From: Zanthoxylum bungeanum
Taxonomy: Eukaryota > Streptophyta > Magnoliopsida > Sapindales > Rutaceae
Direction: 5' to 3'
NCBI GenBank assembly: GCA_019454045.1
Contig: SKCR01025343.1
Coordinates: 98,249 to 162,248 of the forward strand
Length of the DNA stretch: 64,000 nucleotides
The notes under the pieces were generated by a model, which did no database searches, was not told the origin of the DNA, and saw only the letters and a program-made list of their open reading frames with translations. A program made the translations under genes and the position numbers. Position 1 is the stretch's first letter, and each line of letters starts with the position of its first letter. Below, one piece after another: positions 34,532 to 62,034 of the stretch.

Positions 34532-34738
34532 TGTTTCAGGGTTGTTGGCTTGCTGTTTTGGTTGTTTTTGCCTGCTGTTTTGGTTGTTTTTTGTTGCTGT
34601 TTTGGTTGTTTTTGGCTACTATTTTTGGTTATTTTTTGGATGCTGTTTTGGTTATTTTTAGCTGCTGTTTTGGTTATTTTTGGCTGCTGTTTTGGTTGTT
34701 TTTTGGCTGCTATTTTGGTTGGTTGTTTCACGGCTTTC
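34532..34738 (-). repeat. Tat-like LTR (T), first part, with GCTGTTTTGGTTGTTTTTG repeats
   Basis: It begins near TGTTTCAGGG and consists largely of about eight degenerate 20-22 bp units between 34545 and 34730. It is cut at 34738 by Athila-A and resumes at 44752. The hydrophobic F/W/L-rich ORFs on both strands (34480-34851) are translations of this repeat, not genes. Confidence 0.5.
34734..34738. repeat. Target-site duplication of Athila-A, left copy (CTTTC)
   Basis: CTTTC directly before TGATGAGCGG is repeated at 44747-44751 directly after the GCCGGTCA end of the other LTR. Confidence 0.88.
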
Positions 34739-36876
34739 TGATGAGCGGAAAATATATCAATATTTACCGCCCATTTTACTTAATATTTTGTTTAGTTTCT
34801 CGGGTTTGTGAACGTTTTGATATGTTTTATTTTATTTTGCAGATAAAATAATATCGGGACTCAATAAAATCATTTAGAACGAAATGTGGATCAAATAAGG
34901 GCAATTATTGGACTTGATATATTAATTTTGGAGATTGGAAACTTGAAAGGGCGTTTTTGACGAAGTGCAGTTTTGGAAATTCCAGTTTTGCGCATCTGTC
35001 GTATTTTGAGCATAACTTTTTACTCAGATATCGGATTGAGCTGATTCAAGTTCCAGATTAAAGAAGACTAAAAGATCTACAACTTTGAAAGAGAAAATAT
35101 TTTCAAATTCCGATGATTTCATGACCGAAATTGATGAACCATCCAGAAGTGTGTGGAGTGTAATTATTAAAAGTCATTATCAATCATTTTCAAAGCAAAA
35201 TATTAATTAATAAATAATTAATAAAAATTATCAAATCACCACCAAACAAGATAAGCAATTAGTGGAGCAATTATGGATTTGGTGGAGTAATTAGTGGAGA
35301 AATTAATAATGGATTTGGTGGAGCAATTAGTGGAGCAATTAGTGGAGCAATTAATAATTGATTTGGTGGATGATTTGATGGAGGAAAATTTTGCCTATAA
35401 ATACTAAGCCATTTCATTTGTAAAATTCATAATTTCTTCTAAGGAATTCCTTAAGAATACTAAGAAGATTGTATCTTGTTTGTTTATTTATAGTTTTTAG
35501 TAATTAATTTTCACTTTCGCACTTTCTTTTCTTTACTTTTCAGTTTTTACTTTCCGCAATTTAGTTTTACGCACAACACTTTCTTTTCTTTACTTTTTCA
35601 GTTTTTATTTTTCAAGCAATGAGGAGGTAATTCCCCCTTGCTGGGGTGAAAGGTAAAACTTTTATTATTACTATTTAGATTAATCTCCCTTAATTATAAT
35701 ATATAAACTATTTAAAACCTGACTTAATGAAGATACCGCTATATTGGTCGGTTGGTAATTAATTATAAAATGGTTTTAATCTGACTAAGTGGATACCGCC
35801 TGGTTGGTCGGTTGGTAATTAATTATTAATTTGACTTAATCAGGATACCGCCTATATGGCTGGTTGGTAATTATCACGCAAAGTTAATATATTATATTAA
35901 GGGAGATATCTAAAATAGTAGTAATAAAAGTTGATCCTCTAACCCCAGCATTTTCTTTTATTGTACTTTTACTTTATTTACTTTTAGCAATTTACTTTCA
36001 ATAATTTTCTTTTAATTTTTTTTACTTTTACTTTTACTTTTACTTTTACTTTTACTTTTCACTTTTTTACTTTTCAGCAATTTACTTTTCAGTATTTACT
36101 TTATGTCTTTTATTTTATTTAAGTTTTTACTAGCCCTAGTTATGTGTTAGTTATCTGGGGTTGTGATGAATTCTAATATCACCGGTTTATAAGGGATTAT
36201 TTTATAGTTTGGGTAATTTATAGGTTTACTTATTAAGTCTTAAGCTTAATGCTTCTTGTTGTCTGATCACCAATAAGATTGATGTGGTAAATCTAAATTG
36301 AACTAGACATAGGGATTTTAGGTTTCAGCCTTAGACTTAATAGCCCACGATCTTCCTTGAGGATAGATAACCCTTTAATAGATTTCTTTACAGGATAGGA
36401 ATATACCTGTCGGGCGGGGGTAGCCATAATTGGAACTTAATCTTAATGAATCCAGATAATTTGGTTGACATAGACATATGATTCAATTGGGTTAAACTGG
36501 ATATTTGTAGTTGACCATCGGAAGAGGCTTTTACATAATTTAGTGTTCCAGGTTAGTAAACCGATTTATTACACAAACATAAAATAATCACTTCATCTTT
36601 TAAATGATATTAGAATGATTCACAACCCTAGATCTTGTGTCTTTTGTTATTTTCCTTAGTATTTTCTTTTATCTTTTTATTTATTTATTTAGCAAATCTA
36701 CAATCAACCAAATCAATCAAGCAATCAATTCCATTCTCCTTTAATTAGATATTTGTAAATAAATAGATTCAATAATTAATAACAATAGTAGGAATTAAGT
36801 CCTCGTGGGATTGATATTTTTATACTACTTGAACGATACGTGCGCTTGCGTTATACGTGTGTGTTTACGCCGGTCA
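34739..36876 (+). repeat. Athila-A 5' LTR
   Basis: Contains a 'ggagcaattagt' repeat run (35262-35370), a TATA box (35396-35403), three units of about 60 bp with GGATACCGCC...GGTTGGTAATT (about 35721-35873), and a (TTTTAC)n run near 36024-36062. All recur in the 3' LTR. The GATACCGCC unit also recurs in the two other Athila-type LTRs of the window. Confidence 0.93.
35396..35403 (+). promoter_or_regulatory. TATA box of the Athila-A 5' LTR
   Basis: TATAAATA in the context TTTTGCC-TATAAATA-CTAAGCC. The same element is at 43243-43250 in the 3' LTR, 54880-54887 (TATAAATT) in the inserted LTR and 57757-57764 in Athila-B. Its conservation makes it the likely start site driver for the genomic RNA, and so for the captured LOG sequence. 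Confidence 0.65.
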
Positions 36877-36882
36877 AGTTTT

Positions 36883-36900
36883 TGGCGCTGTTGTCGGGGA
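36883..36900 (+). other. Primer-binding site of Athila-A (tRNA-Asp type)
   Basis: TGGCGCTGTTGTCGGGGA resembles the Athila/Tat site TGGCGCCGTTGCCGGGG, which pairs with tRNA-Asp, with two C-to-T changes. It starts six bases after the LTR end. Confidence 0.85.
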
Positions 36901-37006
36901 CTTATTTATCTTTTACTATTAGTTTAGGGGTTAGATACCTTTACTTGTATCTAATTTTTTTACTTATTGTTTTTGTTTTCTTGTGTTTCAGGTTCTCAGA
37001 AACTTC

Positions 37007-37789
37007 ATGAGACGAACCAGAAGCTTTGAACTCCGACCGCTTGACCCAGAAATTGAAAGAACCATCAGACAGTTGAGAAGGGAAAGGCGAGAAGGCCAAG
37101 AAGCTTTTGTCAACATGGAACCTGAACCTTTGAACGTTGCACCACCAATTCCCATTCGAGACAGAACCATTCCGGTGGTTGACAGACTTATTTCCTGTGT
37201 TGTACTTCCTCCCTTACCAGCAAATGCGTGTGACATCAAAACATGCATTCAAATGATTCAGCAGTCAGTTCAGTTCGGGGGGAATGCAACTGAAGATCCT
37301 AATTCCCACATCAGCAACTTCCTGGAAGTTTGCAGCACTTTTAACTACAACAGAGCATCAGAAGAAGCAATGAGACTGCGAGTTTTTCCATATTCCCTGA
37401 AGGACAGAGCTAAAGCTTGGCTACATTCACTACCAGCAGGTTCTATCACAACTTGGAACACTTTAGCCACCAAATTTCTTGCAAAGTACTTTCCACCAGC
37501 CAGAACCAGAAAATTGAGGAATGACATCACATCTTTTGTACAACAAGATTCAGAATCCCTCTGCGAAGCTTGGGAAAGCTACAAAGATTTACTCCGGAAA
37601 TGTCCACACCATGAAATTCCAAAGTGGCTAGAAGTTCAGACCTTCTACAATGGACTTTCTGGAATAATGAGAACCACAATCGATGCTGCTGCTGGAGGAG
37701 TACTAATGGCAAAAGGAGAAGATCAAGCTTGGGACCTAATCGAAGAAATGGCCAACAACAATTCCTTGTGGCCAACAGAAAGAGCATGA
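37007..37789 (+). pseudogene. gag: Athila-A Gag, N-terminal and capsid part
   Basis: The ORF from ATG 37007 starts MRRTRSFELRP. The capsid region matches the retrotransposon Gag family: EDPNSHISNFLEVCSTF, LRVFPYSLKDRAKAWLHSLP, TTWNTLATKFLAKYFPPART, ESLCEAWESYKDLLRKCPHH and VQTFYNGL, all strong Athila landmarks. A one-base change just before 37789 brings a stop; the protein continues in another frame. An upstream in-frame GTG at 36983 is not needed as a start. Confidence 0.88.
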
Positions 37790-38618
37790 TCCAAAGAATT
37801 GCAGGAATTTATGAAGTTGGAGCAAACACAGCAGTGAATACCAGGCTGGATCAGATATGCAAATGTCTAGAAACACTTAGCACGCAAGTTGTGAACATCA
37901 CTGGATCCACAAGTTCACCATATGGAGGAGCACCAGAGTCAAACCAACTTGAAGAGACGGTGAATTATGTCAACAATTTCAACAGACAAGGGAACAATCA
38001 TATTCCAACACCTACAACCCAGGGTGGAGGAATCATCTAATTTATCATGGAGCAACAATTCAGGCCAACAGCAGAACTATCCACCTGAATTCCAGCAACA
38101 GAACAAAGGCCAGGAGCAGGCAAATGAATCAGGAATAACAGAAGTGTTAACCTACTTGAAAAAGATGGAAGCAAAACACGACTCTCAAGCAGCAAGATAT
38201 GACACTATATTTCAAAGCCATTCAGCTTCTATTAAAATACTGGAGAATCAAATGGACAACTAGCCAATGCTCAGAGTTACAGACCGCCAGGTACCCTTCC
38301 TAGCAACACAGAGCCAAATCCAAGAAACATGGGGAAGGAACAATGTCATGCCATCATGTTAAAAAGCGGTACTGAAATCAACAAAGATGTTGGAGTCAAA
38401 ACAGATGCTGAGGAAGTTCCAAAAGAAACAAAGCAACAGATGGAGGAAAAAGAAGAAAAGGAAAAAGAACAGATCACTCCACCTCCACCTTTTCCTCAAC
38501 GTCTTCAGAAGAACAAATTGGACAAGCAGTTTTCTCGGTTCCTGGAGATCTTCAAAAAGCTGCATATCAACATTCCATTTGCAGAAGCGTTGGAACAAAT
38601 GCCCACTATGCCAAATTC
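37790..38618 (+). pseudogene. gag: Athila-A Gag C-terminal region, frameshifted
   Basis: Three consecutive frames carry the rest of Gag: a RIAGIYEVGA segment (to 38040), a YNPGWRNH block near 38006 that is out of frame with both neighbours, a Gln-rich stretch to 38263, and 38329-38622 with a Glu/Lys-rich coiled region, PPPPFPQRLQK and FSRFLEIFKKLHINIPFAEAL. The final frame change near 38608 leads into protease. No zinc knuckle was found, which is usual for Athila. Confidence 0.82.
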
Positions 38619-39272
38619 ATGAAAGATATTCTTTCACGAAAACGGAGATTGGGAGATTACGAGACAGTAGCATTAATAGAAGAATGCAGTGCCATCATTC
38701 AGAGGAAACTTCCCCCGAAGTTGAAAGATCCTGGCAGTTTCACTGTTCCTTGCGTCATAGGAGAACATAACTTTGGTAAGGCTTTGTGTGATTTAGGTGC
38801 GAGTGTTAACTTGATGCCTTTCTCTATTTTCAGGAAATTACAGATTGGAGAAACAATGCCAACATCAGTCTCACTACAACTTGCTGATAGAACGCTCGTA
38901 TTTCCGAGAGGTGTAGTTGAGGATGTGCTGGTTAAGGTTGACAAATTCATTTTCCCAGCAGATTTTATTGTCCTTGATATGGAGGAAGACGCAGACGTAC
39001 CAATCATCCTCGGGAGACCATTCTTGGCTACAGGTCGAACCATTATTGATGTACAAAAAGGAGAACTAACCATGAGGGTACATGACCAAGAAGTAACATT
39101 CAATGTTTTCAAAGCCATGAATTTCCCAGATGATGAAAAGAAGGAGGAATGTTTCAAACTCGATGTGATACACAGTACCATTCAGAACTCTGATGAAAGA
39201 CAAAGTTCTACTGACAAACTTAAAACATGTCAATTGCCTATGGAGCCTAAAGATAAACGTCTTTTGTACTAA
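38619..39272 (+). CDS. Athila-A protease region
   Basis: The 217-codon frame begins MKDILSRKRR. The aspartic protease motif is ALCDLGASVNLMPF, with the catalytic Asp codon at 38790-38792. VDKFIFPADFIVLD and VPIILGRPFLAT (the ILGRPFL flap-side motif) follow. The protease would mature Gag and Pol. The reading frame ends at 39272 where the rest of pol is missing, so it is a Gag-Pro fragment. Athila-B retains the equivalent region from 46246. Confidence 0.85.
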   Translation: MKDILSRKRRLGDYETVALIEECSAIIQRKLPPKLKDPGSFTVPCVIGEHNFGKALCDLGASVNLMPFSIFRKLQIGETMPTSVSLQLADRTLVFPRGVVEDVLVKVDKFIFPADFIVLDMEEDADVPIILGRPFLATGRTIIDVQKGELTMRVHDQEVTFNVFKAMNFPDDEKKEECFKLDVIHSTIQNSDERQSSTDKLKTCQLPMEPKDKRLLY

Positions 39273-39283
39273 AGAGCCAATTC

Positions 39284-39627
39284 TTGCACTACAAGCAACA
39301 GAAGAGAAAAAGTTCCACCAACTCAACGAATTGGAGGAATTTCACAATCAGCCTTTTGAGGATGCCAAATTGTACAAAGAAAAGGGCAAGAAAAGACAAG
39401 ATGAGAAGTTAGTGCGCATACAACTAGAACCAGGGCAGAAGGTATTGTTAAACAAATCAAGGGTGAAATTCTTCCCATGGAAGCCAAAATCACGGTGGTC
39501 AGGTCCATTTGTGATCACCAAAGTTTTACCAAATAGAGCAGTTGAGATACATGATCCTGACGCTAACAAAACTTTCAAGGTTAAAAACAAGCGTGTCAAG
39601 CACTACTGGGGAGAATCATTTGAGTGA
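39284..39627 (+). pseudogene. Athila-A integrase C-terminal remnant
   Basis: The frame from about 39284 encodes LNELEEFHNQPFEDAKLYKEK, then LEPGQKVLLNKSRVKFFPWKPKSRWSGPFVI and FKVKNKRVKHYW, the standard Gypsy integrase C-terminal domain. RT, RNase H, the zinc-binding domain and the DDE core, together about 3 kb in an intact Athila, are absent. The join lies between about 39195 and 39285. It could not integrate DNA alone. Confidence 0.88.
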
Positions 39628-39801
39628 CAAAAAGAAAGTGTTACACTTTCAGATTCAGCTTAACATTCGAGAAGCCACGTCTAGCTGACGACTTTAAACT
39701 TAGCGCTAGCAGGGAGGCAACCCATGCAATTTGTGTATATATTGTGATTTGGTGTGATTTAATTTTTTGTGTTTAGTTTTTGCAGATTAAGTCAATTCAA
39801 G

Positions 39802-40350
39802 ATGGAAGAAGCTCAAGCAAATCTTCACAAGCAATTTCCTTCTCTCCCTCCAAAATCTCTCATGAAAGTTTACAAAGCTCGCTTGGAATGAATGAGACTA
39901 CTGACGATCCATGGTATGCCTAATGATATTCGTTGGGTAATTGAAGCACGAGTCCGATTGGCAGGTGAGTCTTCTGACTCTTTTATTTCACATCTGCCTG
40001 GTTTTGGAAGAAGCACCTATGCAAAGAAACGTAGAGCTAAACAAATGGGTGTTTGTTTCAAATGTGCACGATTTAATTGCAACACTCGTTGTCGTTCTTT
40101 AGGAATGGTGTCTGATAATCGCGAAGACAAAATTAGATTCATTAGGGATGGCTTGAGTAAAGAGTCTTTAGATGATATATCTTTAACTCTTGAGACGCAT
40201 CCCAGTGGATATGTTAATATAGCCATTCACAAATTACATACACAATTCCAAAAGGAAAGACAACTGTTAAGTCTCGGGAATCTGACTCAAAAAGACCCTG
40301 TTTGCCAATTTATAAGAAAATTGGATGGGAAGCTTGTCCCTGACGCATAG
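39802..40350 (+). CDS. Post-pol ORF of Athila-A, Cys-rich, function unknown
   Basis: From ATG 39802 the frame stays open to 40350 except for one TGA at 39889-39891; the intact part from 39892 has 152 codons. It holds IRWVIEARVRL, a basic KKRRAKQ stretch and CFKCARFNCNTRC (CX2CX4CX3C, possibly metal-binding), followed by RSLGMVSDNREDKIRFIRDGL. I do not recognise the family; it is not a typical transmembrane Env. Athila-B keeps a degenerate copy (about 46911-47290) with the same Cys pattern, which suggests it belongs to the lineage. A pyrimidine-rich TTTTTGCAG ending at about 39785 resembles a splice acceptor. Confidence 0.7.
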
Positions 40351-40610
40351 ACGTCAATCAAGCCGTTACTTTTCTTGTAAATATTATATCTCTTTGTCTT
40401 TTCTTAATAATTGTGATTTGTTTTGATGTTTTCTTTTATTTTTCTCCGACAGGATCCAGACCTTTTTGACTATCACGATATTAATTCGTTACTAATCGTC
40501 CTCTGGAAGATACTTGTGCTATTATTACTCACCCTTTTTCAGGTACTATAAATTCAGCCCGTCATTGCACTTTTGAAGGCATCCAGAGTTGAGAAAGAAA
40601 TACAAAAAAA
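40351..40610 (+). other. Spacer between post-pol ORF and LOG sequence
   Basis: Non-coding and T-rich. It includes TTTTTCTCCGACAG near 40440-40453, a splice-acceptor-like tract. The last 50-60 bases before 40611 ('agagttgagaaagaaatac') could be the 5' UTR of the captured mRNA. Athila-B has related spacer sequence after its own post-pol ORF and then passes straight to the downstream region. Confidence 0.5.
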
Positions 40611-41259
40611 ATGGAAGCTACTTCAAGAAGACGAGTTGAAAATATCTGTGTGTTTTGCGGTAGTAGTGTTGGTACTAAACCACAATACGTAGAAGCAGCA
40701 CAGGAATTGGGTCGAGTCTTAGCTGCAAGGAATATGCATTTAATATATGGCGGAGGCAATCTTGGACTTATGGGGATCGTTTCAAAGCTGTACGGAAGGA
40801 GGCAGTCATGTTTTGGGAATCATCCCAAAACCCTTGGTAGAGGCAAATCTTATTGGATCATCAAACGAGAGGAACTGATCGTGTCAGGTATGTTTGAACG
40901 ACTGGTAGAAATGATTAACCGAGCTGATGCTTTATCGCTTTGCCAGGTGGCTTGGGTACATTGGAAGAAATTTTTATTGTACTATCTTGGGCGAACCTGA
41001 ACATACACCAAAAACCAATTGGGCTGTACAATGTTGATGGATTTTATGATTTTCTTTGTGTGTTTCTTGATGATGCCCGAAGAAATGGTTCGTGTCAAAA
41101 CCTATGAAAGAACTCCTCTTCACTGCCAGAACTGTTCCGGATCTAATAGACCAACTCATAGCCTATGAACCACAAGTTGACCCTATTCTTTCAAAGATAA
41201 ATTGGTCTGAGGACGATCGTGGTAAGAGGCGTCGGGTTAATCTGGATCTTAACCTTTAA
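40611..41259 (+). pseudogene. Captured LOG-family cDNA (cytokinin riboside 5'-monophosphate phosphoribohydrolase), frameshifted
   Basis: LOG enzymes release active cytokinin bases from their nucleotides in the cytosol. The sequence starts MEATSRRRVENICVFCGSS. It contains the YGGGNLGLMG nucleotide-binding loop, and at 40943-40969 the PGGLGTLEE catalytic motif in a second frame, then [19 protein letters not shown]. It ends at a TAA at 41257-41259 after a KKRR-like basic, Leu-rich tail. About 216 codons in three frames is a normal LOG length. Small indels (near 40790, 40870, 40930 and 41090) break it. No introns are visible although plant LOG genes have several, so it came from spliced mRNA. It is in the element's own sense, inside the LTRs. 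Confidence 0.9.
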
Positions 41260-42572
41260 TTTCCTATAGATTTTCAGCTAACCAGATACAACCTTCTTAA
41301 CTCCCTTTTACTGTTTAAGACATTAGGGACAATGTCTCATTTAGGTTTGGGGGAGGGAATTAGTTGATCAGTACCTTGTTTTTAGTTTGTGTGTTGTTTT
41401 TATTTTTAGTCCAAAATTTTTCGAAAAATACAAAAAAATTGAAAAATTTTCAAAAAATTACAAAAATATTTTGCGTTTTTGTGTTTTTATTTTGACTAAA
41501 AAGGTGAAATTGGTAAAAGGTAGCTGAGTAAGGAGTTTCCACTCCTGAGACGTATCTCAAACCTAATTCGAAACAAGTTAATTTTTGATTATTTCCTTTT
41601 GAATTATTTAATTTGTGAATTCTCCTTAAAACGGACTAAAATGAATCTTCATATTTTCAGTTAGCAGGTATTAACACATATATAGTAACATACGGACATG
41701 AGCTAAAATCGAAAAGGTTTGTAATATTCAGTGCTCTAGTTTAATTGGAGGAAACATCTCAAAAAGCAATGGAGTAAAAAAAAAAAAAAAAAAACGTCCG
41801 AGATCCGAGTTATTAAGTCTGTAAGGGTGTTTTAACACCTAGTGCCCTAAAACCAACTGGTTTGGGAGTCACTGGCCCAACACTTGCTACATGGATCAAA
41901 GATGCTGCAAAAATATATTTATATCTGAAGTCTGGGTAATTAAGTCCGTAGGGGTGTCTTAACAACCTGGTGCCCTAAAACCAACTGGTTTGGGAGCCAC
42001 CGACCCAACACTCGTTACATAGATGGAAGATATTGTATATAAATAAAAAATAGAGAAAAATCAAAGAAAAAATCAGAAAAAATGAGAAAAATTATTCAAT
42101 TGCTTCAAAAAGGTGTTAAATCTGATAGAACTTTAGAACAAAAATATTACTCTCTTATCAACTGCACTTATGACTGTTGTGGGCAAAAATGAGTTGTTTA
42201 ATATTGTGTTGGTTGTGTATATGGAGAATGGTAAAAATAATCGGAGAATTTACTTATTCGGTAATTTAGAATGAAACAAAACAACTATTGACTTGGAGTA
42301 GAAGTTTCACCTGATTAGTCACTAATATCTTTATTCTCTTTTCGCTTGTCTTTTTGCTTTTGTGTGCATTAGTTTTATTATCTTTTTACTTTTGTAAAAC
42401 GTTTGTGGGTATCGTTGCTGTAAGCCCTCACGAGACTACAACTCGTCCACTAGGGACACCTAGGGGTTTAAAGGCTTGTTGCATATGCTAAATGCAACCG
42501 TGATCCCTAAGAAAGTGGCTTAGTTAATTTTATTTCTATTTTGTTGTTTTCCTCGAGGACTAGCAAAATGTT
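41260..42572 (+). mobile_element. Athila-A 3' untranslated region
   Basis: It starts with GACATTAGGGACAATGTCTC and an internal polypurine run at 41343-41357. A poly(A) run is at 41776-41793. Two copies of a unit of about 130 bases with TTAACACCTAGTGCCCTAAA lie at about 41796-41924 and 41925-42040. Athila-B has the same arrangement (47440-48472). No coding sequence. Confidence 0.75.
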
Positions 42573-42585
42573 AGGTTTGGGGGTG
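42573..42585 (+). other. Polypurine tract of Athila-A
   Basis: AGGTTTGGGGGTG ends at the base before the 3' LTR (42586). Athila-B has a counterpart at 57101-57113. Confidence 0.82.
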
Positions 42586-44746
42586 TGATGAGCGGAAAAT
42601 ATATCAATATTTACCGCCCCTTTTACTTAATATTTTGTTTAGTTTCTCGGGTGATGAACGTTTTGATATGTTTTATTATATTTTGCAGATAAAATAATAT
42701 CGGGACTCAATGAAATCATTTAGAACGAAATGTGGATCAAATAAGGGCAATTATTGGACTTGATATATTAATTTTGGAGATTGAAAACTTGAAAGGGCGT
42801 TTTTGACGAAGTGCAGTTTTGGAAATTCCAGTTTTGCGCATCTGTCGTATTTTGAGCATAACTTTTTACTCAGATATCGGATTGAGCTGATTCAAGTTCC
42901 AGATTAAAGAAGACTAAAAGATCTACAACTTTGAAAGAGAAAATATTTTCAAATTCCGATTATTTCATGACCGAAATTGATGAACCATCCAGAAGTGTGT
43001 GGAGTGTAATTATTAAAAGTCATTATCAATCATTTTCAAAGCAAAATATTAATTAATAAATAATTAATAAAAATTATCAAATCACCACCAAACAAGATAA
43101 GCAATTAGTGGAGCAATTATGGATTTGGTGGAGTAATTAGTGGAGAAATTAATAATGGATTTGGTGGAGCAATTAGTGGAGCAATTAGTGGAGCAATTAA
43201 TAATTGATTTGGTGGATGATTTGATGGAGGCAAAATTTTGCCTATAAATACTAAGCCATTTCATTTGTAAAATTCATAATTTCTTCTAAGGAATTCCTTA
43301 AGAATACTAAGAAGATTGTATCTTGTTTTTTTATTTATAGTTTTTAGTAATTAATTTTCACTTTCGCACTTTCTTTTCTTTACTTTTCAGTTTTTACTTT
43401 CCGCAATTTACTTTTACGCACAACACTTTCTTTTCTTTACTTTTTCAGTTTTTATTTTTCAAGCAATGAGGAGGTAATTCCCCCTTGCTGGGGTGAAAGG
43501 TAAAACTTTTATTATTACTATTTAGATTAATCTCCCTTAATTATAATATATAAACTATTTAAAACCCGACTTAATGAAGATACCGCTATATTGGTCGGTT
43601 GGTAATTAATTATAAATTGGTTTTAATCTGATTAAGTATGGATACCGCCTGGTTGGTCAGTTGGTAATTAATTATTAATTTGACTTAATCAGGATACCGC
43701 CTATATGGCTGGTTGGTAATTATCACGCAAAGTTAATATATTATATTAAGGGAGATATCTAAAATAGTAGTAATAAAAGTTGATCCTCTAACCCCCAGCA
43801 TTTTCTTTTATTGTACTTTTACTTTATTTACTTTTAGCAATTTACTTTCAATAATTTTCTTTTAATTTTTTTACTTTTTACTTTTTACTTTTTACTTTTT
43901 ACTTTTACTTTTCACTTTTTTTACTTTTCAGCAATTTACTTTTCAGTATTTAATTTTCAGTATTTACTTTATGTCTTTTATTTTATTTAAGTTTTTACTA
44001 GCCCTAGTTATGTGTTAGTTATCTGGGGTTGTGATGAATTCTAATATCACCGGTTTATAAGGGATTATTTTATAGTTTGGGTAATTTATAGGTTTACTTA
44101 TTAAGTCTTAAGCTTAATGCTTCTTGTTGTCTTATCACCAATAAGATTGATGTGGTAAATCTAAATTGAACTAGACATAGGGATTTTAGGTTTCAGCCTT
44201 AGACTTAATAGCCCACGATCTTCCTTGAGGATAGAAAACCCTTTAATAGATTTCTTTACATGATAGGAATATACCTGTCGGGCGGGGGTAGCCATAATTG
44301 GAACTTAATCTTAATGAATCCAGATAATTTGGTTGACATAGACATATGATTCAATTGGGTTAAACTGGATATTTGTAGTTGACCATCGGAAGAGGCTTTT
44401 ACATAATTTAGTGTTCCAGGTTAGTAAACCGATTTATTACACAAACATAAAATAATCACTTCATCTTTTAAATGATATTAGAATGATTCACAACCCTAGA
44501 TCTTTGTGTCTTTTGTTATTTTCCTTAGTATTTTCTTTTATCTTTTTATTTATTTATTTAGCAAATCTACAATCAACCAAATCAATCAAGCAATCAATTC
44601 CATTCTCCCTTTAATTAGATATTTGTAAATAAATAGATTCAATAATTAATAACAATAGTAGGAATTAAGTCCTCGTGGGATCGATATTTTTATACTACTT
44701 GAACGATACGTGCGCTTGCGTTATACGTGTGTGTTTACGCCGGTCA
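42586..44746 (+). repeat. Athila-A 3' LTR
   Basis: A full partner of 34739-36876 with scattered single-base and short-run differences, for example in the T/AC-rich run near 43865-43930. It ends GCCGGTCA and is followed by the CTTTC duplication. Confidence 0.93.
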
Positions 44747-44751
44747 CTTTC

Positions 44752-46910: not shown

Positions 46911-47290
46911 ATAATGCCAGGACATGTCGACCATCCAAAAAAGAAACAAGCTAAACAATTAGGTGTTTGTTATAAATGTGCACGTTGGCTGTGCAACACT
47001 CGTTGTCGTTCTTTAGGAATGATGTCTAATAATCGCGAAGAAAAAATTTAAAACATTAGAGATGGCTTGAGTAAGAAATCATTAGATAATATATCATTGA
47101 CTTTTGAGACGTATCCTAGTGGATTTTTTAATAAACTGATTTGTAATTTACATATATAATTTCAAAAGAAAGACAACAATACAGTCTCAGTAATTTGACT
47201 TTAAAAGACCATGTTTTCCAATTTATAAGAAATTGGACTAGAAGCATATCCCCAACCCATAGAGGGCGTTCAAGCTGTTACTGGACGTAA
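46911..47290 (+). pseudogene. Athila-B post-pol ORF, degenerate
   Basis: Collinear with 39990-40350 of Athila-A: KKKQAKQLGVCYKCARWLCNTRC, then RSLGMMSNNRE. The Cys spacing CX2CX4CX3C is unchanged, although stops break the frame further on (for example near 47050 and 47157). Confidence 0.8.
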
Positions 47291-60015: not shown

Positions 60016-62034
60016 TGTTGGACAATTATGGCCCATAGCATCACTATTTGTACAGATCATGGTGTTGTTGTACAAATTAACTATGTGACAAATGAAATGG
60101 CCCTTTTATCATTTGTAATTAGATTACCAAGATGTATAAATGATAAAAGGTCCATATGATTAGTTCCGGATTGAGATGATATGAGACAGTATCAATCGAC
60201 GAAGGTTTAATCATTAAATATTCCTAGTCGGAGTATTATCGAGATTGGACATCGATAATGCGTAAAAGACTAGTATTACACTTGTGCGCGTTGTGGGAGC
60301 ATAACGTCATAGTTCTCATATATTTGGGTATAGGATACTCATGCAAGTGTAATAAGAGGTTGTGTTTATCGATGGTACGGGAAAAACTTCGTTCTGGATA
60401 GACCCCTCGGAATTCCATTGGTAGTATGACTATGTGTCTATGGAAGTCCGAATCAGGGTAGTTGTATTTGGTCTTAACCTGAGACTTGCACCGCTAATAC
60501 TTGCGACAATCAATATACATTTGTTTTGGTCGTCTAGGGTTTTAACCGGTTTTGTGTACGCCTCTTCAGGGTATATGGAGAATCGTAGTGTATTGGGTGT
60601 GATGTCAAGACGGAAGTATCACTCCAGTCATAGTGGAGATGATGATCACGTAGGATATGGAACTGGTGCTCTTATGTACTGCAGTCATCGGGATAATATG
60701 ACTAGGTCATGATTATCCGATTATAGAGACTAGTTACCAGAGATCCGATATGTGCTTCGTACGGGGCAGACACAATTCCAGCCCCAGGCCTTGCACGTGA
60801 CATCCGATGTTGGATCGTAATACGCAATACTACATACACTACGTCTGATATAGATCACATATTCCAGTAAGAATATTTCTGGAGAATTGGGTAGGCACGG
60901 TGCTTTGCTAGAAGCCAACCATGTCTTGTAAATTGGTAAAAATGTAGTACTAGGCACGTACGTGTTCGGATAGTCCGACGATCGGATTTACTGCCAACAT
61001 ATCCGGGGATCTCATAGGTCACTTCCCGAAGATTCACCGATGACCTATGACTCACACTTTATTAATCTGGGATTAATTAGATGAGAGAGAAAATTAATCT
61101 GGGATTAATTACTGAGATATTTTATCTGGGATAAAATATTAATTAAAGAGAGAGAACGATTAATTTGGAATTAATCGATAAAATAATATATTCGTTATAT
61201 TATTTGAAATTGGATTTCGACGCGGAATTAAAACTAGATTTTAATTCGGGCAAACGAGTTAATTTAGAATTAATTCGCTAGCGACATGAATAGTATTTTT
61301 GCTAGGCAAAATATTAATTAAATTTGATTTAATTACGTCGCAACGGAAAATTCGTTATTTCGGAATTAGCGAACCCGAGCCCGAGAGTATTTGCGGGCGC
61401 ACTCGCATTTCGAATTCAAGTGCAGCCCACAAGTCACATCAAGCGTCAAATCATTAGTCATTTTGATTGATGTGATGTCTAGTCACTTTGAGTGATGTGA
61501 CAACTTGTCACTTGTGATTGATGGTGGTAGTTGGATAGCTTTAATGCTTGTACCTTTTTGACTTTTGGAAATTCAAAAAAAAATTTGGTATATGTTTTAA
61601 TTGATTTTGGAAATCAATTAACCAACACACAAAAAACACATTCTCTCATTCTCTCCTCTTTTTGCATTCGGCTAAGAGGCCATTTCTATTCTTTTTGTTC
61701 TTCAAAACCGAGAGCACTAAGAAAGAAAATGGAAGATTTGTGGCAAATCTTGCCAATGCTAGCACATGAAGGGTCATCATAAGGTGATAGGGAAACCAAC
61801 TTGTGAGCATGGAATCATCATTCAAAGCTTGGAGCTTCCATGGAGGTGGTGACAAAAAATGGAGCACAAAACCAGTCCAAAACCGAGAGCACCATGGAAT
61901 GAAAGCTTGAAGTTTTTATTGTTCCTCGCATCGTAAAAGCCGATCAATGTAAGTATGATTCTGTCATATTCCGTTGTTGTATTCACACTTGTTTCTTGCT
62001 CAAATTGATCTTGGGACTTAATAGAAACCCAACA
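60016..62034 (+). repeat. Solo Copia LTR inside the Copia-5 LTR
   Basis: The 2019 bp sequence starts TGTTGGACAATT and ends AACCCAACA, flanked by CATAA at 60011-60015 and 62035-62039. No primer-binding site, internal DNA or second LTR is present. It is the reverse complement of the Copia-4 LTR family, including the hairpin chain at about 61075-61370. A solo LTR arises by recombination between the two LTRs of a full element. Confidence 0.92.

What the first reader, a model, noticed from the sequence alone, without database searches (positions are those of the whole stretch)
40611..41259. An Athila retrotransposon carries a full-length, spliced LOG (cytokinin-activation) cDNA
Between the post-pol ORF and the 3' LTR of Athila-A is a sense-oriented LOG-family sequence with start codon, [26 protein letters not shown] and a stop, about 216 codons, with no visible introns. 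The element has matching LTRs and a clean CTTTC duplication, so it moved with this cargo. Few small indels break the frame, so the copy could have been functional when captured, or other copies may still be. An LTR-driven cytokinin gene would be a striking way for a transposon to affect host meristems; even broken, it could yield siRNA against the host LOG. Gene capture by plant LTR elements is known (maize Bs1), but I do not know of LOG capture.
Basis: partly seen in the sequence, partly recalled or inferred. Interest (0 to 1): 0.92.

Follow-up and report, generated by a model that had tools for sequence, protein, structure and literature searches.

The report
Plant jumping gene carrying altered hormone-enzyme gene
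An abundant plant retrotransposon carries its own long-kept, intron-free version of a cytokinin-activating enzyme gene that has lost a residue important for the enzyme and gained a tail resembling a plant gene-repression signal, so it is probably a working transposon gene with a changed job rather than a fresh capture from the host.

Summary
The LOG-like sequence at 40611-41259 is real, and the matching LTRs and CTTTC duplication check out. It is no private capture: a 30-base LOG motif occurs 20,067 times in this 3.96 Gb assembly (0 in the reversed control), and 11 of 21 copies examined are open (217 codons); the window copy is broken. Variation favours third codon positions. Relatives from four eudicot orders form one clade with it, sister to ordinary plant LOGs (98/95). 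The host LOG gene examined is split by introns; the element copy is not. LOG domains in plant Gypsy elements are already in print (Citrus, poplar), so the capture itself is not new. What I found in no paper I could search: the copy number, retention in pol-less elements, loss of a Lys kept in 114 of 114 ordinary LOGs but only 10 of 100 relatives (its mutation abolished activity in a bacterial LOG), and a C-terminal LxLxL (EAR-like) tail in 75 of 82 full-length relatives against 0 of 120 ordinary LOGs. Best reading: a fixed accessory gene with an altered, possibly nuclear and TOPLESS-recruiting role. That function is inferred.

The parts
34734..34738 (.). target site duplication CTTTC, left
34739..36876 (+). 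5' LTR (TG...CA)
   Evidence: 25 mismatches in 2137 aligned bases to the 3' LTR
36883..36900 (+). primer-binding-site-like stretch TGGCGCTGTTGTCGGGGA
   Evidence: sequence; likeness to Athila/Tat-type sites is recalled
36935..37786 (+). gag (capsid) open frame
   Evidence: PF03732 E 4.7e-23
38412..39269 (+). gag-end/aspartic protease open frame
   Evidence: PF13650 E 0.0033 and PF08284 E 0.0095, both below the curated cut-off
39301..39624 (+). integrase C-terminal remnant; RT, RNase H and integrase core are missing between the protease frame and this piece
   Evidence: like the end of the integrase region of the pol-bearing L045/L035 element (66.7% over 99 residues); no Pfam match of its own
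39892..40347 (+). zinc-finger ORF (C-x2-C-x4-C-x3-C), interrupted at its 5' side by a stop; commonest length of listed relatives is 182 aa (59 of 120)
   Evidence: PF01623 Carla_C4 30.9 bits (cut-off 20.9), PF05515 Viral_NABP 29.3 (cut-off 23); relatives
40431..40542 (+). two possible 3' splice sites (AG at 40451-40452 and 40541-40542) after pyrimidine-rich tracts; no ATG between 40431 and the LOG start in the window copy
   Evidence: 32 rows; A/G kept in 1.00/0.88 and 1.00/0.97; inferred, no RNA seen
40611..41259 (+). retro-LOG ORF (broken here by four frame changes; 217 codons in open copies)
41221..41256 (+). C-terminal tail of LOG: basic stretch and LxLxL
42574..42585 (+). polypurine-tract-like stretch before the 3' LTR
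   Evidence: sequence
42586..44746 (+). 3' LTR
44747..44751 (.). target site duplication CTTTC, right

Best explanation
The sequence is a fixed accessory gene ('retro-LOG') of an abundant Gypsy-type, Athila-like LTR retrotransposon family. Shown: full-length LOG homologue without introns; very high motif count; present in a pol-bearing element and in two kinds of pol-less elements; open in about half of the copies examined; third-position bias and low dN/dS; one clade with proteins of other eudicots. Inferred: one ancient capture of spliced LOG mRNA, then descent with the element; expression from a spliced subgenomic RNA. Most likely mechanism (inferred): the protein keeps the LOG fold but has lost the Lys of MHxRK and carries a disordered basic LxLxL tail, so it is not an ordinary cytokinin-activating enzyme. 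It more likely works as a nuclear effector that recruits TOPLESS-type co-repressors, perhaps still binding AMP or cytokinin nucleotides, to change host hormone or silencing responses in the element's favour.
For: Homology and fold; AlphaFold model of relative P0002, pLDDT 85.5, best PDB match 2a33, TM 0.95 by target length. Copy number: 20,067 LOG-motif matches against 0 in the reversed control; RT motif 6,406 against 0; at least four contigs carry both, 3,620-3,642 bp apart. Pol-bearing LOG element: L045 with L035 (RVT_1, RNase H and rve matches). Selection: variable sites by codon position 24/14/52 in LOG against 106/98/95 in neighbouring noncoding DNA, copies chosen by DNA similarity; mean dN 0.0216, dS 0.154 over 136 pairs of open copies. 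Introns: host gene L041 matches LOG3 in seven coding blocks by tblastn, while the element protein aligns to LOG3 over 200 residues without a gap. Clade: 98/95, tail removed. Lys: K in 114 of 114 ordinary LOGs and 10 of 100 relatives, one change on the tree; Ala there abolished activity in CgLOGII (PMC5379747, passages). Tail: LxLxL in 75 of 82 relatives of 215-221 aa and 0 of 120 ordinary LOGs; its three Leu vary far less (0.26-0.41 bits) than the residues between (1.78, 2.06); tail modelled as disordered.
Against: No RNA, protein, localisation or enzyme data. The catalytic Arg (90 of 100), Thr (98) and Glu (98) are kept, and the papers name Arg and Glu, not Lys, as the residues conserved in all LOG groups, with substrate-binding residues somewhat variable (passages); the mutagenesis was in a bacterial type II LOG. 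So activity may remain. LxLxL plus basic residues is a short motif; TOPLESS binding and nuclear import are predicted from it alone. Some relatives keep Lys and lack the LxLxL end (Xanthoceras, P0033/P0035), one keeps both (P0038); the LxLxL state needs three changes on the tree. That relatives in other plants lie in retrotransposons was not seen here; a paper reports it for Citrus and poplar. The 120 ordinary LOGs were fetched with LOG3 as query; of other types only LOG8 was looked at. The held copies are the best matches to the window, not a random sample.
Confidence: 0.6

Rival explanations
1. The retro-LOG is still a cytokinin-activating enzyme, driven by the element to raise cytokinin and cell division, which helps the element spread in dividing or germline cells.
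For: Fold and phosphate-binding motif kept; Arg 90 of 100, Thr and Glu 98 of 100; the papers call Arg and Glu the universally conserved catalytic pair; purifying selection.
Against: The Lys needed for activity in CgLOGII is Leu, Met or Ile in 90 of 100 relatives, against Lys in 114 of 114 ordinary LOGs.
Confidence: 0.22
2. The LOG part serves the element itself (particle assembly, RNA or nucleotide binding, or nuclear import), and the LxLxL is not a TOPLESS motif.
For: Kept beside another accessory zinc-finger ORF and retained in pol-less elements.
Against: The alternating conservation of Leu fits a docking motif better than a merely basic tail.
Confidence: 0.25
3. LOG is hitchhiking: its codon bias only reflects past selection, and it has no function for present elements.
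For: 10 of 21 examined copies are broken, among them the window copy.
Against: gag shows a similar codon-position bias (41/29/79) to LOG (24/14/52); the tail is conserved across deep lineages.
Confidence: 0.1
4. A recent, neutral capture of host LOG mRNA by this element.
For: Intron-free and inside matching LTRs.
Against: 20,067 motif matches, separate clade from host LOG, selection signal, relatives in four plant orders.
Confidence: 0.02

Closest known systems
YgdH/LOG-domain Gypsy consensus elements of Citrus sinensis, C. clementina and Populus trichocarpa (Alvarado-Marchena et al. 2022, PMC9289625, citing Steinbauerova et al. 2011)
   Same: A LOG-family domain in Ty3/Gypsy elements of eudicots (section 12 read; other passages).
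   Different: What I read names the domain and the species and describes no residue loss, tail, clade, copy number in the genome or pol-less forms. Steinbauerova 2011 is not held and was not read; supplements were not read.
Ordinary plant LOG enzymes (At2g37210/LOG3, At5g11950/LOG8)
   Same: Fold and PGGxGTxxE motif; relative P0002 is 40-43% identical to four ordinary LOGs and 41-46% to 1ydh and 2a33 in the structural alignment.
   Different: Host LOG gene has introns, element LOG none; Lys of MHxRK lost and K/R-LxLxL tail gained in most relatives.
Orchid Gypsy elements with an AlkB m6A demethylase ORF (PMC9289625)
   Same: A host-type enzyme domain fixed as an extra gene of a Gypsy family.
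   Different: There the enzyme was active in vitro (abstract and passages); here the active site is altered and activity is untested.
Athila additional 3' ORFs (sunflower Athila 14, PMC11728184)
   Same: Extra ORFs beyond gag-pol, one with a predicted nuclear signal (passages).
   Different: Different proteins (Transposase_32/PF03078-related, transmembrane); PF03078 was not found in the four window ORFs scanned.
Maize Bs1 (recalled; no paper looked at)
   Same: Spliced host sequence inside an LTR element.
   Different: Bs1 is, as I recall, a low-copy transduction; this is a gene kept in a huge family.

Membership tests
LOG / TIGR00730 family | Sequence above family cut-off | tested here: met
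   open copy L009: TIGR00730 175.8 bits (cut-off 96.35), PF03641 123.6 (27)
Cytokinin riboside 5'-monophosphate phosphoribohydrolase (NF058542 equivalog) | Score above the enzyme-level cut-off | tested here: not met
   121.2 bits of 300; no ordinary plant LOG was scored as a control, and the model serves bacterial and archaeal annotation
LOG / TIGR00730 family | Catalytic Arg and Glu and the PGGxGTxxE motif | tested here: met
   MFER and PGGLGTLEE in the open copy; Arg 90 of 100, last Glu 98 of 100 relatives
LOG / TIGR00730 family | Lys next to the catalytic Arg (activity lost on mutation in CgLOGII) | tested here: not met
   Leu in the element protein; Lys in 10 of 100 relatives; paper passages
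LOG / TIGR00730 family | Phosphoribohydrolase activity | not testable with these tools
   needs protein
Athila lineage | Ty3/Gypsy order PR-RT-RH-IN, with LTRs and 5-bp duplication | tested here: met
   order in L045; LTRs and duplication in the window. Shared by other Gypsy lineages
Athila lineage | RT falls in the Athila clade | not tested
Athila lineage | Athila ORF domain PF03078 | tested here: not met
   not among matches up to E 1 of the four window ORFs scanned; whether every Athila element has it was not checked
EAR-motif proteins | LxLxL or DLNxxP sequence | tested here: met
   75 of 82 relatives of 215-221 aa; definition from the abstract start of PMC9956375 in the listing
EAR-motif proteins | TOPLESS binding and repression | not testable with these tools
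   needs an interaction assay

The most novel reading that the evidence does not exclude
A plant retrotransposon lineage turned a captured cytokinin enzyme into a nuclear effector: a LOG fold without an active-site Lys, tipped with a TOPLESS-docking LxLxL tail, kept while several eudicot orders diverged and now present, by motif count, some 20,000 times in one assembly, used to bend hormone signalling or silencing for the element's benefit, much as pathogen effectors recruit TOPLESS.
Probability: 0.33. Interest if true: 0.9.

Novelty: new variant of a known kind. Interest (0 to 1): 0.7.

Why it matters
If right, a transposon encodes a host-type hormone enzyme remodelled into a regulator: a clear case of a mobile element with its own host-manipulating gene. 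It makes testable why extra ORFs of plant Gypsy elements are kept, and it warns that genes annotated as 'LOGL10' (for example in Populus) may be transposon genes.

Tried and rejected
Separate processed pseudogene: no flanking repeat over 7 nt and no poly(A) after the stop. Recent host capture: rejected. siRNA against host LOG: three fetched host stretches (L041, and L042/L043, which look like two copies of one gene), longest exact match 13-16 nt in 17 of 19 element sequences, 18 and 20 nt in one each, so not fully excluded; the other LOG-like exon hits (28 hits above 58 bits among the 150 scored) were not tested. Viral contigs: 3 pattern matches, none confirmed. Bacterial promoter scan: uninformative for a plant. 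Counts of gag and zinc-finger motifs: not completed, so LOG retention could only be set against RT. Papers: 10 searches; the only paper with YgdH and retrotransposon was PMC9289625. Rows left out: the trees hold a hand-picked 35 or 36 of 121 listed relatives (P0001 included) and 11 of 120 ordinary LOGs, plus host LOG, LOG8 and two bacterial LOGs; residue counts use the 100 and 114 sequences of 200-260 aa; its 82 are those of 215-221 aa.

Full report
WHAT IS THERE. The window lies in an unnamed 3.96 Gb assembly, G000 contig C21749. Positions 34739-44746 hold an LTR retrotransposon whose LTRs differ at 25 of 2137 aligned bases, with CTTTC on both sides. K2P is 0.0118, which at recalled rates of 1.3e-8 to 7e-9 per site per year gives about 0.45-0.84 million years. 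Between the LTRs are gag (PF03732, E 4.7e-23), a protease frame (weak, below cut-off), an integrase end, a zinc-finger ORF and the LOG sequence. RT, RNase H and the integrase core are missing. The LOG frame of this copy changes four times.

NOT A ONE-OFF. The DNA search scored 40 places, 94-100% identical and covering at least 646 of 649 bases, out of 7545 first-look candidates. A 30-base LOG motif with up to 3 mismatches occurs 20,067 times, with 0 in the reversed control. An RT motif taken from a LOG-bearing relative occurs 6,406 times, control 0. The motifs may differ in conservation and the RT motif may match elements without LOG, so the ratio is rough. The assembly holds some loci twice: L010 and L011 agree at 99.9% over 1500 flanking bases, so counts are per assembly, not per haploid genome. 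Among the places listed (about the first 100 of each), at least four contigs carry both motifs 3,620-3,642 bp apart on the same strand; I found them by eye.

THREE ELEMENT TYPES WITH LOG. I fetched 20 copies (L009-L028), the best matches after the window itself. Eleven of 20 (L009, L010, L011, L013, L014, L015, L017, L019, L022, L026, L027) match the window element without an RT-sized insertion from its 5' LTR side to beyond LOG. L016, L018, L020 and L028 match only the LTR side and the LOG side; between them lies a different stretch with a frame that by eye resembles a gag zinc knuckle. The other five start later or are interrupted. L045, upstream of the open LOG of L035, holds a protease-like frame, RT (PF00078 E 4.6e-16), RNase H (4.9e-37) and integrase (PF00665 1.2e-18), then the zinc-finger ORF; its frames are interrupted by stops. 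LOG is thus retained where pol, or gag and protease, are gone; since I searched by LOG, this says nothing about elements that lost LOG.

OPEN FRAMES AND SELECTION. 11 of 21 copies (window copy and L009-L028) have an open 217-codon LOG; counting L010 and L011 once, 10 of 20. With the protein-selected L029-L040 a script found 18 of 33; L033 and L038 match over the whole protein but were not counted. In the 21 copies, variable sites by codon position are 24/14/52 in LOG, 41/29/79 in gag (12 copies), 31/18/41 in the protease frame (14), 20/18/30 in the zinc-finger ORF (16, a weak bias) and 106/98/95 in noncoding 41260-42559 (20). Among 17 open 217-codon copies (136 pairs, L010 and L011 both in) mean dN is 0.0216 and mean dS 0.154, ratio 0.14. 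Choosing open copies biases this downwards; one search chose by DNA similarity.

ORIGIN. Host LOG gene L041 (C30408) matches LOG3 in seven coding blocks with gaps between them; block edges rest on tblastn alone. The element protein aligns to LOG3 over 200 residues without a gap. The protein search returned 7806 proteins among 8000 scored candidates, the best 120 listed; these include proteins of Xanthoceras, Populus, Reevesia and Paulownia (several each) and Diplodiscus (one): Sapindales, Malpighiales, Malvales (both Reevesia and Diplodiscus) and Lamiales. Their gene structure and surroundings were not seen; a paper reports such domains in Gypsy elements of Citrus and poplar. In trees of 50 and 51 rows the relatives form one clade against ordinary plant LOGs (including host LOG, LOG8 and Cryptomeria), with bacterial outgroups: SH-aLRT 96, and 98/95 with the tail removed. 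The MHxRK columns stayed in both trees.

CHANGED ACTIVE SITE. Of sequences of 200-260 aa, the Lys of MHxRK is present in 114 of 114 ordinary LOGs and 10 of 100 relatives (Leu 37, Met 28, Ile 25); Arg is kept in 90, the Thr of PGGxGT in 98 and the catalytic Glu in 98. The loss needs one change on the tree. In Corynebacterium LOGII, Ala at Arg155, Lys156, Thr175 or Glu178 abolished activity (PMC5379747, passages); Arg155 lies 15 residues before the PGG motif, as the Arg does in LOG3, so Lys156 is the Lys in question. Against this, that paper and a review (PMC8234997, passages) name Arg and Glu as the residues conserved in all LOGs. The fold is kept: the model of relative P0002 has pLDDT 85.5 and matches 2a33 best.

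TAIL. The element protein ends GKRRRVNLDLNL. LxLxL lies in the last 12 residues of 87 of 121 relatives and of 75 of the 82 that are 215-221 aa long, and in none of 120 ordinary LOGs, nor in their last 30 residues. In 89 relatives of 212-221 aa the three Leu positions have entropies of 0.41, 0.26 and 0.26 bits and the residues between them 1.78 and 2.06; the linker before the basic stretch has 2.2-3.0. Of the 82, one has both Lys and LxLxL. LxLxL needs three changes on the tree. The tail is modelled as disordered. LxLxL is one consensus of the EAR repression motif (PMC9956375, abstract start in the listing), and a fungal effector binds TOPLESS (PMC8126959, listing). TOPLESS binding here is inference.

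EXPRESSION. Upstream of the LOG ATG are two AGs after pyrimidine-rich tracts, kept in most of 32 rows, with no ATG from 40431 to LOG in the window copy. A spliced LOG RNA is inferred only.

NOVELTY. LOG (YgdH) domains in plant Gypsy elements are known. The ten searches named in Tried and rejected found no report of the Lys loss, the LxLxL tail or this copy number; Steinbauerova 2011 was not available and supplements were not read, so parts may be there. I file it as a new variant of a known kind.

Noticed in passing
39892-40347: Zinc-finger ORF matching carlavirus nucleic-acid-binding proteins (Carla_C4, Viral_NABP) above Pfam cut-offs; 418 relatives found, named ones among the 120 listed in Populus, Xanthoceras, Acer and Rhamnella. 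A search for carlavirus, retrotransposon, nucleic acid binding and Gypsy together found no paper.
   Followed up: partly
46940-47262: Second copy of the zinc-finger ORF in the window at 80% identity; LOG itself matches only once in the window.
   Followed up: no
L044 202-3644: Long ORFs that look like an endogenous pararetrovirus (recalled resemblance, not searched) beside a LOG-bearing element.
   Followed up: no
2282-26266 and 60016-61312: Several related repeat copies in direct and inverted orientation, perhaps further LTR elements.
   Followed up: no
P0048, P0050, P0079: Populus proteins named LOGL10 in public records are among the listed relatives, with the Lys loss and LxLxL tail, and may be transposon genes annotated as host genes.
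   Followed up: partly
L010 and L011: Two contigs carry the same insertion with 99.9% identical flanks, so the assembly probably holds both haplotypes.
   Followed up: partly
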